Shown: piece after piece, positions 54,150 through 64,000 of the stretch
Numbering within the stretch: position 1 is the first letter of the stretch
Layout: every line of letters starts with the position of its first letter
Assembly: GCF_001642575.1 (NCBI RefSeq)
Contig: NZ_LXNG01000058.1
Coordinates: 62,001-126,000 of the forward strand
Reading direction: 5' to 3'
Origin: Xanthomonas floridensis
Lineage (GTDB): Bacteria; Pseudomonadota; Gammaproteobacteria; Xanthomonadales; Xanthomonadaceae
Length of the DNA: 64,000 bases
Position numbers and translations under genes: made by a program
Notes under the pieces: model-generated
The model's database searches: none
Told to the model about the DNA's origin: nothing
Seen by the model: only the letters and a program-made list of their open reading frames with translations

Positions 54150-54624
54150 CGGCGAAGCACGATGCCTGTCGGTAGCGGCTTCGGTAGGGGCGGCAGCGCG
54201 GCCGGGGACTGGCTCCTCGGCTCGGTCAGACATTCTGTCTGACTCGCCGCCGCGGCACATCCTTGTGCCGCTCTCCGCCAATCCCCAGCCACGCTGCCGC
54301 CTCGGCACGTTGCTTCCATGACCTGGAACCGTGAACACGCCGTTGAAGCGCGGCATGAAGCTCTTCTCGGGTCGGGGCATTACGGCACCGCTTGCGGCTA
54401 CCGGTACGTGTGTCTCGGCTCGTGCGTGCTGCTGGCACGAGCCGGGGGCATGGAGAGTAGGCGGTACTTCACCTTTGAAGGCGCGTGGCGACGCGTGTGT
54501 CATTGCAGCCACTGACAGCTCCATGCGTCTCCGCTCATCCGGCGCTGCGCCTGGCCGGTTGCCGCGCACCTCCGAGGCGCCGCCGCCAATCCTGCTACCA
54601 TGCGCGCCCCTGAGGTGACTGCCG
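54150..54624. other. Intergenic region before the cobalamin riboswitch
   Basis: About 475 bp without a supported gene. It contains a perfect 8-bp inverted repeat, GTCAGACA (54225-54232) and TGTCTGAC (54236-54243), with a TTC loop and no T-tract. The btuB promoter should lie in the last 100 bp, but I cannot place it. Confidence 0.5.
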
Positions 54625-54808
54625 GCTGGCCGGTGGTTTAAACGGGAATCCGGTGCGCGCATCGCCTTGGCGAGGCGCAAGTCCGGAGCTGCCCCCGCAA
54701 CGGTGGGCGAGGCAAGGGTCCGCAGGTAAAGCCACTGTGCTGTGCATGGGAAGGCGCGGATCCGGGAAGCAACCAAGCTTCCGCTCGCAAGCCCGGAGAC
54801 CGGCCTGA
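54625..54808 (+). promoter_or_regulatory. Cobalamin (adenosylcobalamin) riboswitch
   Basis: Conserved blocks appear in the right order: TTTAAACGGGAATCCGGTG, AAGTCCGGAGCTGCCCCCGC followed by AACGGTG, AAAGCCACTG, GGGAAGG, and the B12 box AGCCCGGAGACCGGCC at the 3' end. GGCCGGT (54628-54634) pairs with ACCGGCC (54799-54805) as the P1 helix. In this class B12 binding usually blocks expression. The aptamer ends about 130 bp before the btuB ATG. Confidence 0.95.
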
Positions 54809-54939
54809 AGGGATTGACCCGGCACGCGGTGGGCGTGGCCTTGTGCATCTGGTGCGCGCGCGCCGGACGCCTGGCCCGTTGCTGCCTGCCGACCCCATTG
54901 CCCCCGCGCGGGTAGGCGCGGTTCCAGGAGCAGCAGTCG

Positions 54940-56817: not shown

Positions 56818-57215
56818 GACGCGGCAAACACTGCGCGGTTCCTTGAGGTAGACAGGCGGCCGGTGTCGACGGGTCGCCATAAGGGCCATTCCCGTGCGCA
56901 AGATCGTTGTTGAGGCAGGCACTACCCCGCAGCGGATGAAACGGGCAATGCAGCCAGCGGGGCGGGTGGCCCGGCAAGACGGGGCCGCTACACTGCGGCC
57001 CTGGCCGGCTGCGTCGCTCCCTGTGTTGCCCCACCTGCGGTTGCGTTTTTGAAGCGCCGTGGAATCCCGCAGCGCCGCCGCGCCTGCAGCGCACCAGGGC
57101 ATCTGCAGGCGGCATCGCGCATGCGTACCCGGCCATTGCCTCGCATCGCGCGGATGGATGGACCGATCTTCAGACCGACCGCTGCCTGCTGTTTGCCACT
57201 CTTCGAGGAACACCG
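56818..57215. other. Intergenic region between btuB and the BtuM-like genes
   Basis: About 400 bp. I looked for a second cobalamin riboswitch here and found no B12 box or GCCCCCGCAAC block. No coding frame is supported; it ends with CGAGGAA, the ribosome binding site of the next gene. Confidence 0.5.
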
Positions 57216-57809
57216 ATGACCCCGCTCTCCCGGCCCGCCCAGCGCAACCTGCTCATCGCCCTGATGCTGGCGATGACGGCCACCCGCTTCCATCACGTGG
57301 GCGATTGGCTGCATCTGCCCGATGCCTCGATGGCGGTGTTCTTCCTTGGCGGCTTGGCGCTGCGCCGGCATACGGCGTTTGCGCTGTTGCTGGCACTGGC
57401 GGTGCTGATCGACTGGGCCGCGGTATCGTTGGCCGGCGTCAGCGACTTCTGCATCACCGCCGCCTACGCCGCGCTGCCGCTGGCCTATGCCGTGCTGTGG
57501 TATGCCGGCCGTGCGTTGCAGGCGCGGCTTGCACCTGCGGCGATGCCGCTGTGCGCGGTCTGGGCGCTGGGGGTCGCGGCTGCAGCGGTATCGTTCCTGA
57601 TCTCCAATGGCGCGTTCTATTGGCTGGGCGGGCGCTACACCGACCCGCACTGGGCGCAGTACCTGCAGCGTGCGTGGCAGTGGGGCCCGGTGTTCGTGCG
57701 TAGCACAGCGCTGTATCTGGCGGTGGCTCTGGTCGCTGCAGGGTGTGTGCTGCGCTGGCGCGCCACCCGCGCTGCCGCCGACTCGACCACCGCGCTGGAG
57801 CTGTCATGA
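57216..57809 (+). CDS. BtuM-like vitamin B12 membrane transporter, copy 1
   Basis: A 197-residue polytopic membrane protein with about six hydrophobic helices and no signal peptide. Distinctive parts are RFHHVGDWLHLPDASMAVFFLGG, VLIDWAAVSLAGVSDFC (Cys79), ITAAYAALPLAYAVLWYAGR and ISNGAFYWLGGRYTDP. BtuM of Thiobacillus denitrificans, a solitary ECF-type S component of about 200 residues, takes up B12 and uses Cys80 to ligate and decyanate it. The size, a Cys at position 79 and a place right after btuB in a B12 cluster support the same role. The family call is inference from memory. CGAGGAA precedes the ATG, and the stop overlaps the next gene. Confidence 0.7.
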   Translation: MTPLSRPAQRNLLIALMLAMTATRFHHVGDWLHLPDASMAVFFLGGLALRRHTAFALLLALAVLIDWAAVSLAGVSDFCITAAYAALPLAYAVLWYAGRALQARLAPAAMPLCAVWALGVAAAAVSFLISNGAFYWLGGRYTDPHWAQYLQRAWQWGPVFVRSTALYLAVALVAAGCVLRWRATRAAADSTTALELS

Positions 57810-58417
57810 GCGTAGCTTCGCATCAGGCCGCGCCTGCCCGAACGGCCCTGCACGGCGGGGCCGCATGGGCCTGTGGCATCGCGCTGGCGCTGCTGATGGT
57901 CTGCACCCGCGGCCAGCATTTTGCCAGCGTGGACGTGTTGCCCAGCGCCTCGTGGGCGGTGTTCTTTCTGGCCGGTGCATTGCTGCGCCCGGTGTGGATG
58001 CTGCCGCTGCTGTTCGGGCTGGCATCGGCATTGGATCTGATCGGCCTGGCCTCCGGCAGCATCAGCGACTGGTGCCTGTCCCCGGCGTACTGGGCCTTGG
58101 CGCTGGCCTATGCCACGTTGTGGCTGGGCGGGCGGTGGTCTGCCATGCGGCTGGAACGCGATGCCTGGTCGGAGCTGCCACGGGTGCTTGGCGCGCTGTT
58201 GTTCAGTGGTAGCGCGGCCTATCTGCTGTCCAAGGGGGGCTTTTACTTCCTTTCCGGCCGCTACCCACAGGCCACGCTTGGCGGCTTCCTGGCCCGCGTG
58301 CCGGTGTACTACCCGCGCGCGCTCGGCACCCTGGCCGGCTACGTGGGCATCACTTTCGCATTGCTTGCCGCAGGGCGCAGCCTTGCCGCACGTCCACTGA
58401 TGGGAGAACGCGCATGA
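57806..58417 (+). CDS. BtuM-like vitamin B12 membrane transporter, copy 2
   Basis: A 203-residue paralogue of the preceding protein. Aligned features are LPSASWAVFFLAGALLR, LDLIGLASGSISDWC (Cys90), LSPAYWALALAYATLWLGGR and LLSKGGFYFLSGRYPQ. The SD-x-C plus AY-x-AL-x-LAYA-x-LW-x-x-GR pattern is shared with copy 1, but overall identity looks low, so the duplication is old. It overlaps copy 1 by ATGA and cobO by ATGA. It may have its own specificity or form a pair with copy 1. Confidence 0.68.
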   Translation: MSVASHQAAPARTALHGGAAWACGIALALLMVCTRGQHFASVDVLPSASWAVFFLAGALLRPVWMLPLLFGLASALDLIGLASGSISDWCLSPAYWALALAYATLWLGGRWSAMRLERDAWSELPRVLGALLFSGSAAYLLSKGGFYFLSGRYPQATLGGFLARVPVYYPRALGTLAGYVGITFALLAAGRSLAARPLMGERA

Positions 58418-59025
58418 CGCCCCCCGAGCACGACGACGCACATTATCGCGAACGCGCGCAACGCAAGAAGGAATTGGTGGACCGGCGCATCGCGCGCGCC
58501 GTGATCGACCGCGGCGTGCTGCTGGTCAATACCGGCAACGGCAAGGGCAAGAGTTCGTCCGGCTTCGGCATGCTGGCGCGCTCGCTCGGGCATGGCCTGT
58601 CCTGCGGCGTGGTGCAGTTCATCAAGGGCACGTTCTCTACTGGTGAAGAGGCGTTCTTTCGCCGTTTTCCCGATCTGCTCGACTACCACGTGATGGGCGA
58701 AGGCTTCACCTGGGAAACCCAGGACCGCAACGTGGACATCGCCGCCGCGCAGGCGGCCTGGCAGCTGGCGCGCGGCATGCTGGCCGATGCACGCTACGAC
58801 TTCGTGCTGCTGGACGAACTCAATATCGCCCTGGTGAAGGACTACGTTGCGTTGGACGAGGTGCTGGCCGCAGTGGCTGCGCGTCCGCCGGGCCAGCACG
58901 TGGTGATCACCGGACGCGCAGCGCCCGCCGGCTTGATCGAGGTGGCAGACACGGTCACCGAGATGCGGCTGGTCAAACATGCCTTCAACGCCGGCATCAA
59001 GGCGCAGCTAGGCATCGAGCTGTAG
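58414..59025 (+). CDS. cobO: Corrinoid adenosyltransferase (CobO/BtuR)
   Basis: A 203-residue ATP:cob(I)alamin adenosyltransferase that attaches the 5'-deoxyadenosyl group to reduced corrinoid. The P-loop variant is [36 protein letters not shown], and [16 protein letters not shown] are typical for CobO/CobA, as is [22 protein letters not shown]. It is coupled by ATGA to the BtuM-like gene upstream. Confidence 0.96.
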
Positions 59026-59089
59026 GCATGCGTGCGCGTGCGTTGCCCGGCGGTGGGCTGGCGTGTGGCATGCGGTTGGGCCGCGCACG

Positions 59090-60004: not shown

Positions 60005-60091
60005 TCGCAGCCGGTGCCGACCGCCGCGCTGGCTGTGCAGTGCGCGGTTGCGACCGGGCGCGGCCGCATGTCTTTCCCTTTGGAGCACCGC

Positions 60092-61071
60092 ATGCTTGAA
60101 CATGGAGGCCGGTTGCGCCGCGCCGCGCAAACCTATGCGATCCCGCTGGCGCACTGGCTGGACCTGTCCACCGGCGTGAGCCCGTTTGCCTGGCCGGTGC
60201 CGTCGATTCCGGAGCCGGTGTGGCAGCGCCTGCCCGAAGACGACGACGGCCTGGCCGCAACCGCGGCGGCGTACTACGGCGCGCCGCAGGTGCTGCCGGT
60301 GGCAGGCTCGCAGGCGGCGATCCAGGCGCTGCCGCTGTTGCGTGGTCGCGGCCGTGTGGGCGTGCTTGCGCCGGGCTATGCCGAACATGCGCATGCCTGG
60401 CGACGCGCCGGCCACACCGTGGTGCCGCTGCCGGCAACGGCTTTGCTGCAGGCGGCGGATACCTTCGATGTGGTGGTGCTGATCCATCCCAATAATCCCT
60501 GCGCGGACAGCTTCGATCGTGAACTACTGTTGCAGCTGCATGCGCGGATGGCGGCGCGTGGCGGCTGGCTGGTGATCGACGAAGCCTTCATGGATGCGAC
60601 CCCGCATGCGAGCGTGTGCGCGCAGACGCAGCAGCCGGGCCTGGTGGTGCTGCGCTCGGTCGGCAAGTTCTTCGGCATGGCCGGCGCGCGGGCCGGCTTC
60701 GTGTGCGCGCAGGCGCCGCTGCTGGACGCCTTGCGCGAACAGCTGGGGCCATGGTCCGTGAGCGGGCCCACCCGCTGGGCCGTGCAGCAGGCCCTGGCCG
60801 ATACCGGCTGGCACGTGCAGGCACGCGCGCAACTGCACGCCGCATCGCAGCGGCTGGCGCAGTTGCTGCGTCGCCACGGCATCGTGCCATCGGCCGGTAC
60901 CGCGTTTTTTCAGTGGTGCGAACGCGCCGATGCGCAGGCCCTGCACGTGGCGCTGGCAAGGCGCGGCATTCTGACCCGGCTGTTCGATACCCCGGCCAGC
61001 CTGCGCTTCGGCCTGCCGCCCGATGCGGCCGGCGAGGCACGCCTGGACGCGGCACTGCGCGAGCTGCTGGC

Positions 61072-61075
<4 letters not shown>
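60092..61075 (+). CDS. cobD: L-threonine-O-3-phosphate decarboxylase (CobD/CobC)
   Basis: A 327-residue PLP enzyme of the aspartate aminotransferase fold that makes aminopropanol phosphate for the nucleotide loop. The N-terminus [34 protein letters not shown] is typical; [12 protein letters not shown] and [12 protein letters not shown] follow; the PLP Lys is expected in [19 protein letters not shown] 60092 has GGAG six bases upstream; ATG 60068 is in frame but lacks a site. It overlaps cobQ by ATGA. Confidence 0.93.
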
Positions 61076-62547: not shown

Positions 62548-63068
62548 TCCTGGGAGGCGCGCGCTCCGGCAAGAGCGCACTGGCCGAACGCCTCGCCGCC
62601 AGCGCGCTCGCCGCCGGCACGGCTGCCGAGGTGGCCTACGTCGCCACCGCGCAGGCCTTCGATGCGGAAATGCAGCAGCGCATCGCACATCACCGCAGCC
62701 GGCGCCCGCCGCAGTGGCAGTGCGTGGAAGAACCCGTTGCGCTGGCGGCCACCCTGCAGGCACTGGCGGCGCCGCAGCGCTGCGTACTGGTGGATTGCCT
62801 GACCCTGTGGCTGAGCAACCTGCTGGGTCACCCGGATGCGGATGCCTTCGCGCGCGAGCGCGCGGCACTGCTGGCCACGCTGCCGCAGCTGCCGGGGCAG
62901 ATCCTGCTGGTCAGTAACGAGGTGGGACAAGGCATCGTGCCGCTGGGCGAACTCACACGGCGTTTTGTCGACGAAGCCGGCTGGCTGCACCAGGCATTGG
63001 CGCTACAGTGCGAGCGGGTGGTGTTCGTGGTGGCGGGCTTGCCGATGGTGCTGAAGGGAGAGGGATGA
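62535..63068 (+). CDS. cobU: Adenosylcobinamide kinase/guanylyltransferase
   Basis: A 177-residue bifunctional enzyme (CobU/CobP) that phosphorylates adenosylcobinamide and transfers GMP. The P-loop is [18 protein letters not shown], and [13 protein letters not shown] contains the guanylated His. [26 protein letters not shown] and [12 protein letters not shown] are all family segments. It begins inside cobQ and overlaps the cobT start. Confidence 0.95.
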
Positions 63069-64000
63069 TGAGCAGCGACTGGATCTTTGCCGCATGCGCG
63101 GTGCCGGACGCACGCGTGCGTGCAGCTGCGCTGGCACGGCAGGAGCAACTGACCAAGCCGCACGGTGCGCTGGGCCGGCTCGAGCAGCTGGCGGTGCAGC
63201 TGGCGGCCTGGCAGCGCAACGAGCAGCCAGTGGTGCAGCGGATCTGGATCGCGGTGTATGCCGCCGACCACGGCGTCGCTGCCGAAGGCGTGTCTGCGTT
63301 TCCACAGGCGGTAACTGGCGAGATGGTGCGCAACTTCGCCCGTGGCGGTGCGGCGATTTCGGTGCTTGCGCGTGAACTCGGTGCGCGGCTGGAGGTAGTG
63401 AACCTGGGGGTGGTCAACGACCCGGGCGAGCTGCCGCGTGTGCGCCGCGCCTGGATCGCGCCTTCCAGCGCCAATATCTGCGAGCAACCGGCGATGACGC
63501 CCAGCCAGCTGCGCGACGCGCTCGCTGCAGGCGCGGAGAGCATTGCGCAGGCACGCAGCTGCGATACGCAGCTGTTTGTGGGCGGCGAGATGGGCATCGG
63601 CAACACCACCGCGGCCGCCGCGCTGGGCTGCGCGCTGTTGTCGCAGTTTCCGCAGGCGATGGCCGGCGCCGGTACCGGGCTGGATGCCGAAGGCATCGCA
63701 CACAAGGCCACCGTGATCACCCGCGCGCTCGCGCTGCACGCCGATGCCGCCACCCCGCTGGAGCGCCTGCGCCGGCTCGGCGGTTTCGAGATTGCCGCCC
63801 TGGTGGGCGCCTACATCGCTGCCGCGCAGGCCGGCATCCCGGTGCTGGTGGATGGCTTCATCACCACCGCCGCGGCGCTGGTGGCCACCCATCTCAACCC
63901 CGGCGTGCGGCAGTGGCTGCTGTTCGGGCACCGCTCGCACGAACGTGGCCACACCGCCTTGCTGCGCGCCCTGGATGCCGATCCGCTGCTGCAGCTGGAC
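63068..64000 (+). CDS. cobT: Nicotinate-nucleotide:dimethylbenzimidazole phosphoribosyltransferase (3' end outside window)
   Basis: About 311 residues are visible and the frame is open to the window end. It activates the lower ligand as alpha-ribazole phosphate. Typical segments are [66 protein letters not shown], and [11 protein letters not shown], with a catalytic-type Glu expected in [11 protein letters not shown] 63068 is five bases after GAGG; an adjacent ATG at 63065 is possible. The family length is about 350, so about 40 residues lie beyond the edge. cobS may follow, but cannot be seen. Confidence 0.94.

What the first reader, a model, noticed from the sequence alone, without database searches (positions are those of the whole stretch)
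57216..58417. Tandem BtuM-like transporters in a riboswitch-headed B12 operon
Two adjacent, overlapping genes encode short membrane proteins that share an SD-x-C, AY-x-AL-x-LAYA-x-LW pattern and lie between btuB and cobO. Their size (about 200 residues), cysteine position (79 and 90) and context resemble BtuM, a solitary ECF S component that imports and decyanates B12. Xanthomonas would then use a duplicated ECF-type protein instead of, or besides, BtuCDF. Two copies suggest division of labour (for example cobalamin versus cobinamide) or a heterodimer.
Basis: partly seen in the sequence, partly recalled or inferred. Interest (0 to 1): 0.78.

Follow-up and report, generated by a model that had tools for sequence, protein, structure and literature searches.

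The report
Two different BtuM vitamin-B12 importers side-by-side
A B12-salvage operon of a Xanthomonas-like bacterium carries two neighbouring genes for relatives of the known one-protein vitamin B12 importer BtuM; they look like two old lineages placed side by side rather than a fresh duplication, and a third copy lies elsewhere in the genome.

Summary
ORFs 57216-57809 (BtuM1, 197 aa) and 57806-58417 (BtuM2, 203 aa) lie between btuB and cobO behind a cobalamin riboswitch. Both match the solved BtuM chain 8c7p (E 7e-22, 2e-36). Cys79 and Cys90 align with its Cys80, cysteine in 204 of 204 distinct BtuM proteins. No FecCD/BtuC, EcfT, SbmA/BacA or CbiC match was found in the genome, so corrinoid import probably rests on BtuM.

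'Duplicated' is not supported: BtuM2 falls within the pseudomonad BtuM clade, BtuM1 in a separate clade, and a duplication within the order is rejected. The same slot holds BtuM1 alone (15 of 24 order loci), BtuM2 alone (33 of 80 named loci) or both. Three genomes of the genus lost BtuM2 while the rest of the operon stayed nearly full-length. Each probably works alone; an obligate heterodimer is unlikely. Thirteen lineage-typical differences, some beside His28 and Cys80, leave specialisation open. Transport, decyanation and fold are untested; the structure server stayed busy. Known family, apparently undescribed two-lineage arrangement.

The parts
54596..54822 (+). Cobalamin riboswitch aptamer (RF00174), 5' leader of the operon
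   Evidence: cmscan 100.5 bits, E 6e-24; the one match reported in the genome, 150 of 314 candidates scored
54940..56817 (+). btuB, TonB-dependent B12 outer-membrane receptor (625 aa)
   Evidence: TIGR01779, 926 bits, cut-off 600
57216..57809 (+). btuM1: BtuM of the lineage typical of this order (197 aa, Cys79)
   Evidence: phmmer to PDB 8c7p E 7e-22; clade 99/96
57806..58417 (+). btuM2: BtuM of the pseudomonad-type lineage (203 aa, Cys90); ATGA overlap with btuM1
   Evidence: phmmer to PDB 8c7p E 2e-36; groups with pseudomonad BtuM 100/99
58414..59025 (+). cobO/btuR, cob(I)yrinic acid a,c-diamide adenosyltransferase; ATGA overlap with btuM2
   Evidence: NF004637 262 bits, TIGR00708 213 bits
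59063..60004 (+). cbiB, adenosylcobinamide-phosphate synthase
   Evidence: TIGR00380 191 bits, cut-off 166
60068..61075 (+). cobD-type threonine-phosphate decarboxylase (start codon uncertain)
   Evidence: TIGR01140 362 bits
61072..62547 (+). cobQ, cobyric acid synthase
   Evidence: NF001989 660 bits
62535..63068 (+). cobP/cobU-like (177 aa)
   Evidence: own reading of the ORF; present in three relatives; no HMM run
63068..64000 (+). cobT-like, runs off the window (L096 shows it continue, followed by an alpha-ribazole-phosphatase-like and a cobS-like gene)
   Evidence: own reading of ORFs of L096; no HMM run

Best explanation
The pair encodes two BtuM-family proteins, each able on its own to carry corrinoids across the inner membrane. 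BtuB brings the corrinoid across the outer membrane. BtuM binds it base-off with the conserved cysteine on cobalt, removes a beta-ligand such as cyanide, and carries it in without an ATPase. CobO, whose gene overlaps btuM2, adenosylates it and so traps it, and the rest of the operon finishes incomplete corrinoids to adenosylcobalamin. BtuM1 is the older resident of this slot in the order. BtuM2 comes from the pseudomonad-type lineage and was most likely inserted between btuM1 and cobO in an ancestor of the order, then lost again in several lines. BtuM1 is the core copy and BtuM2 an accessory one, plausibly with different corrinoid preference or kinetics. Shown here: family, conserved residues, operon, no match for the other transporter families sought, two lineages, losses. 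Inferred: transport, decyanation, trapping, direction of transfer, specialisation.
For: Homology to the solved chain 8c7p, whose numbering fits H28, D67, C80, Y85 and R153 of BtuM of Thiobacillus denitrificans. Both window proteins carry all five residues, and Cys is in 204 of 204 distinct proteins. Operon with btuB, cobO and a riboswitch. No FecCD, CbiQ/EcfT, CbiC or SbmA_BacA match. MetH present as a B12 user. BtuM1 clade 99/96; BtuM2 with pseudomonads 100/99; in-order duplication rejected (dlnL 68 and 81). The order's cobO forms one clade with pair-bearing and BtuM1-only genomes interspersed. BtuM1 alone and BtuM2 alone in the slot (recounted). Three BtuM2 losses in otherwise nearly full-length operons. 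Median dN/dS 0.21 and 0.24. Experiments on the T. denitrificans protein: PMC6072759 (parts 1-3 of 5 read).
Against: No transport, binding or decyanation test of these two proteins. No fold model. Hydropathy found only 5 (BtuM1) and 3 (BtuM2) strong segments, but also only 4 in the fragment of the known six-helix protein. Repeated loss of BtuM2 in the genus may mean redundancy rather than specialisation. The direction of transfer rests on a nested position with 96/94 support; a two-copy ancestor with losses is less likely but not excluded. The SbmA_BacA control rings in only 2 of 14 genomes, so that absence says little.
Confidence: 0.82

Rival explanations
1. The two genes are a tandem duplication within this order, giving dosage or later specialisation.
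For: They are adjacent, of similar size and 39% identical over 166 residues; in X. cucurbitae (L109) one gene with a BtuM1-like start and a BtuM2-like rest stands alone.
Against: BtuM2 groups with pseudomonad BtuM at 100/99, and one clade of BtuM1+BtuM2 from the order is rejected in two overlapping data sets.
Confidence: 0.05
2. BtuM1 and BtuM2 form an obligate hetero-oligomeric importer.
For: Overlapping genes; in all 25 family genomes with a close BtuM2, BtuM1 stands next to it (in one, G092, BtuM1 is in two pieces).
Against: BtuM1 alone precedes cobO in 15 of the 24 loci L180-L203; BtuM2-type alone in 33 of 80 named loci; three genomes of the genus lost BtuM2 only; BtuM of T. denitrificans supported growth without a partner gene (PMC6072759).
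Confidence: 0.06
3. The pair is plain redundancy: BtuM2 is an extra copy with the same substrate range.
For: BtuM2 is missing or incomplete in 5 of the 20 genus genomes that have the operon, and a mixed gene in one more.
Against: BtuM2 is kept across many genera of two families under purifying selection, with 13 lineage-typical differences, several beside pocket residues.
Confidence: 0.3
4. One or both are membrane-bound decyanating or corrinoid-binding proteins that do not transport.
For: Cysteine-dependent decyanation is known for BtuM (PMC6072759); the mechanism of solitary S components is unclear (PMC11109136, passage).
Against: No other inner-membrane B12 importer family among those sought was found, and BtuM of T. 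denitrificans supports uptake of hydroxocobalamin too.
Confidence: 0.08

Closest known systems
BtuM of Thiobacillus denitrificans (PMC6072759; the PDB copy searched holds 8c7p/8ovv, the paper cites 6FFV)
   Same: Length (chain 199 aa), H28/D67/C80/Y85/R153 equivalents, btuR (cobO) beside it, no ECF module found.
   Different: Here two BtuM lineages share one operon and a third copy sits beside PduO; no biochemistry of these proteins.
Single BtuM in the riboswitch-led salvage cluster of Azotobacter (PMC4465626, passages read) and other pseudomonads
   Same: btuB-btuM-cobO...cbiB-cobD order in most of the loci; BtuM2 belongs to this clade.
   Different: No BtuM1 in front of it.
ECF S components (BioY, CbrT)
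   Same: BtuM has this fold according to PMC6072759 (parts 1-3 read) and is listed with them in PMC11109136 (passages).
   Different: No EcfT match in this genome.
BtuCDF
   Same: Would serve the same step.
   Different: No FecCD permease match in this genome.

Membership tests
BtuM (solitary S-component-like B12 importer) | Sequence homology to characterised BtuM | tested here: met
   phmmer to 8c7p: E 7e-22 over residues 5-173 and E 2e-36 over 22-188; that 8c7p is the T. denitrificans protein is inferred from five matching residue numbers
BtuM (solitary S-component-like B12 importer) | Invariant cysteine that ligates cobalt (Cys80) | tested here: met
   Cys79 and Cys90 align with C80; Cys in 204 of 204 distinct proteins of at least 170 aa, the window's own included
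BtuM (solitary S-component-like B12 importer) | Pocket residues H28, D67, Y85, R153 | tested here: met
   H27/D66/Y84/R152 in BtuM1; H38/D77/Y95/R164 in BtuM2
BtuM (solitary S-component-like B12 importer) | Gene context with btuB and btuR/cobO | tested here: met
BtuM (solitary S-component-like B12 importer) | No ECF module in the genome | tested here: met
   PF02361: no match in own genome; rings in 10 of 14 control genomes
BtuM (solitary S-component-like B12 importer) | Six helices, S-component fold | tested here: inconclusive
   Structure server busy at every try; hydropathy too weak to decide, also on the known protein
BtuM (solitary S-component-like B12 importer) | Supports B12 uptake; decyanates cyanocobalamin | not testable with these tools
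   needs the bench
BtuCDF | FecCD-type permease BtuC | tested here: not met
   PF01032: no match in own genome; rings in 13 of 14 control genomes
ECF transporter with a module | EcfT/CbiQ subunit | tested here: not met
Tandem duplication within the order | Both copies of the order form one clade | tested here: not met
   AU tests: dlnL 68.4, p 0.001; dlnL 81.2, p 2e-68

The most novel reading that the evidence does not exclude
Two anciently separate BtuM lineages were assembled in one operon because they handle different corrinoids (for example complete cobalamins versus cobinamide or cobyric acid, or cyano- versus other upper ligands), giving a bacterium with no known ATP-driven B12 importer a two-specificity, ATPase-free uptake system; a third BtuM beside PduO serves a separate route without a riboswitch.
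Probability: 0.35. Interest if true: 0.65.

Novelty: new variant of a known kind. Interest (0 to 1): 0.45.

Why it matters
How a lone S-component-like protein moves its substrate without an ECF module is still unclear (PMC11109136, passage read). Here nature supplies a comparison: operons with BtuM1 alone, BtuM2 alone and both, in front of the same adenosyltransferase, and genomes that dropped one copy. That makes substrate preference of the two lineages directly testable. It also bears on genome reading: no Pfam or NCBIfam model hit these proteins, so model-based annotation may pass them over.

Tried and rejected
Tandem duplication: rejected by AU tests. Obligate heterodimer: unlikely from solo operons and losses. 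A second riboswitch or other Rfam RNA between btuB and btuM1: none up to E 1. Internal promoters: none found by the scan, and three terminator-like sites against 2.7 expected in shuffles, so nothing above chance. Domain models: none in Pfam or NCBIfam for either protein at E 1; for the 20 proteins of A1 only four single weak Pfam matches, best E 0.013. Hydropathy count of helices: not informative. Paper searches for BtuM with cobalamin, with Xanthomonas, with vitamin B12 and transporter, with Stenotrophomonas, and for 'BtuM2', plus two on Xanthomonas and B12 (of the 122 papers only 12 were listed): in the titles, abstract starts and passages that I saw, no report of paired BtuM genes. I opened only PMC6072759 (parts 1-3 of 5 and passages), PMC11109136, PMC4465626 and PMC8123684 (passages). 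Only the held open-access library was searched, and the supplementary homologue list of PMC6072759 was not seen.

Rows dropped: the 120-row tree used distinct proteins of at least 170 aa thinned at 80% identity (204 to 119, plus the PDB fragment). One search left out 6 rows (long branches, the mixed gene, one piece of a split gene), one search left out 7 and thinned the rest to 61. The cobO tree thinned 118 distinct proteins to 43. The dN/dS run used 15 of the 20 genus genomes with the operon for BtuM1 and 12 for BtuM2.

Full report
What is there. The window holds a riboswitch-headed operon (RF00174, 54596-54822): btuB, btuM1 (57216-57809), btuM2 (57806-58417), cobO, cbiB, cobD, cobQ, then cobP-, cobT-, phosphatase- and cobS-like genes named by my own reading. 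btuM1/btuM2 and btuM2/cobO each overlap by ATGA. The organism is taken to be a Xanthomonas because its BtuM2 is 94% identical to that of X. codiaei.

Family. Neither protein hits a Pfam or NCBIfam model at E 1. Both match one solved sequence, 8c7p/8ovv, 'Cobalamin ABC transporter' (E 7e-22; E 2e-36); the first protein has one other, weak match, lactose permease at E 0.22. Counting along that chain gives H28, D67, C80, Y85 and R153, the very residues named for BtuM of T. denitrificans, so I take it to be that protein; the paper itself cites 6FFV. Over 204 distinct proteins of at least 170 aa, the window's own included, the cysteine is present in 204; both window proteins keep all five residues.

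Genome. Its assembly (completeness 100 by the tool's estimate) shows no FecCD match (13 of 14 controls ring), no CbiQ/EcfT (10 of 14), no SbmA_BacA (only 2 of 14, a weak control) and no CbiC (7 of 14). MetH is present; the second, below-cut-off B12-binding match is a B12-binding radical-SAM-like protein. So the cell uses and can finish corrinoids, shows no CbiC for making the ring, and shows no importer among those sought other than BtuM. btuD and btuF were not searched for by themselves.

A third copy. G000:C12:106744-107238 encodes another BtuM (192 aa, P0004), 5 nt before a PduO-type adenosyltransferase (TIGR00636, 191 bits). In 14 of 14 distinct BtuM3 loci held, PduO follows. Position 153 is Asn in 13 of 13 distinct BtuM3 proteins; R153A did not stop decyanation in the paper.

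Distribution. Family: 88 of 149 genomes have a BtuM; 25 have a close BtuM2, and in all 25 BtuM1 stands before it (in one, G092, in two pieces). Order: 136 of 299 match the BtuM1 query with some BtuM. Of the 24 loci L180-L203 fetched there, which are among the best matches to BtuM1 and so a biased sample, 9 have the pair and 15 have BtuM1 alone before cobO, all 15 in family f2; L030 and L033 (family f1) and L062 (f2) also have BtuM1 alone. Class: 40 of 369. Named genomes: 547 relatives were found and the best 80 kept, ranked by likeness to BtuM2, again a biased sample. Of these 80, 46 have both genes (Xanthomonas, Pseudoxanthomonas, Stenotrophomonas, Lysobacter and close genera, Luteimonas, Frateuria, Rhodanobacter, Dyella, and MAGs; in L107 BtuM1 and in L142 BtuM2 is in two pieces), 33 have the BtuM2 type alone (Pseudomonas and close genera, Stutzerimonas, Azotobacter, Marinobacterium, one MAG) and one, X. 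cucurbitae (L109), has a single gene with a BtuM1-like start and a BtuM2-like rest.

Not a duplication. In the 120-row tree BtuM1 of the order is one clade (44 rows, SH-aLRT 95) and BtuM2 of the order (31 rows, 99, the mixed gene included) lies inside a clade with pseudomonads (46 rows, 97). In the careful 61-row tree: BtuM1 99/96, BtuM2 100/99, BtuM2 plus pseudomonads 100/99, nested at 96/94. There the nearest rows to BtuM1 are three proteins from other families of the class (99/93); the first tree places those three elsewhere. Holding the order's BtuM1 and BtuM2 together costs 68.4 log units (p-AU 0.001) and 81.2 (p-AU 2e-68). The cobO tree keeps the order's pair-bearing and BtuM1-only genomes in one clade (22 rows, 99; with L062 23 rows, 84) apart from pseudomonads. 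The simplest reading is that BtuM2 entered the slot between btuM1 and cobO; the direction is an inference.

Natural knock-outs. In the genus, 35 of 35 genomes match BtuM1 with some BtuM. cobO matches in 20 of 35, and BtuM1 (in G523 the mixed gene) in the same 20. All 35 also have a match away from the operon that by its identity (37-41%) is of the BtuM3 kind; the window's own and 10 others were checked for PduO. Of the 20, 14 have a BtuM2 of 198-203 aa. G140, G520 and G539 lack most or all of it, with different parts left (about 54 codons at the start, 34 at the end, none), while btuB, btuM1 and the eight later genes are full-length or nearly so. G535 and G541 have it in pieces, with cobO in pieces too. 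G523 has the mixed gene, and its cobO holds stops. G092 has BtuM1 in two pieces; its cobO lacks about 20 residues and its cobD and cobQ are in pieces, so it is no clean case of an operon that lost only BtuM1. Some split genes may be assembly errors. Median dN/dS is 0.21 (BtuM1, 105 pairs) and 0.24 (BtuM2, 66 pairs), so both look to be under purifying selection.

Mechanism. From PMC6072759 (parts 1-3 of 5 read): BtuM of T. denitrificans supports B12-dependent growth of E. coli without btuC and btuF, binds base-off through Cys80, decyanates slowly, and may rely on trapping by BtuR. The parts needed for that scheme are in this operon. Whether the two lineages differ in substrate is open: 13 positions differ with at least 85% agreement in each lineage (75 and 89 proteins), among them 26 (two before H28), 79 and 82 (on both sides of C80), 134, 139, 157 and 158. 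Against specialisation stands the repeated loss of BtuM2.

Verdict. The identification was a good read; the duplication idea fails, the heterodimer idea weakens, and a third copy was missed. A known family, in a two-lineage arrangement that I did not find described in the searches.

Noticed in passing
L004 8685-9263 (-), G000:C12:106744-107238: A third BtuM directly before a PduO-type adenosyltransferase, with no Rfam family found in that 18-kb stretch; BtuM3 carries Asn where most other BtuM have Arg153.
   Followed up: partly
window 59025-59063 compared with loci: In many relatives about 1.2 kb lies between cobO and cbiB, in several loci (L111, L113, L115, L134, L138) with a weakly CobQ-like ORF of some 410 aa, perhaps cobB/cbiA; it is missing here and in the Stenotrophomonas loci.
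   Followed up: no
window 56818-57215: The gap between btuB and btuM1 is 399 nt here but 87 nt in the close relative X. codiaei and 21-297 nt in other loci of the genus; no RNA family match.
   Followed up: partly
   Followed up: partly
G520:C6:3770820-3770918: A 33-residue stretch 79% identical to BtuM1 residues 102-134 lies far from the operon in this genus member; perhaps a displaced fragment.
   Followed up: no
Genus-wide: 15 of 35 genomes of the genus lack a cobO match and BtuM1/BtuM2 but keep a BtuM3-type match, so the salvage operon is an accessory there.
   Followed up: partly
A1 (20 BtuM proteins): Pfam gave only four single weak matches for these 20 proteins, and NCBIfam none for the two window proteins; there seems to be no model for BtuM in either.
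   Followed up: no
L095 1432-2925 (+): A B12-binding radical-SAM-like protein (498 aa, below the curated cut-offs shown) is a possible second corrinoid user besides MetH.
   Followed up: no
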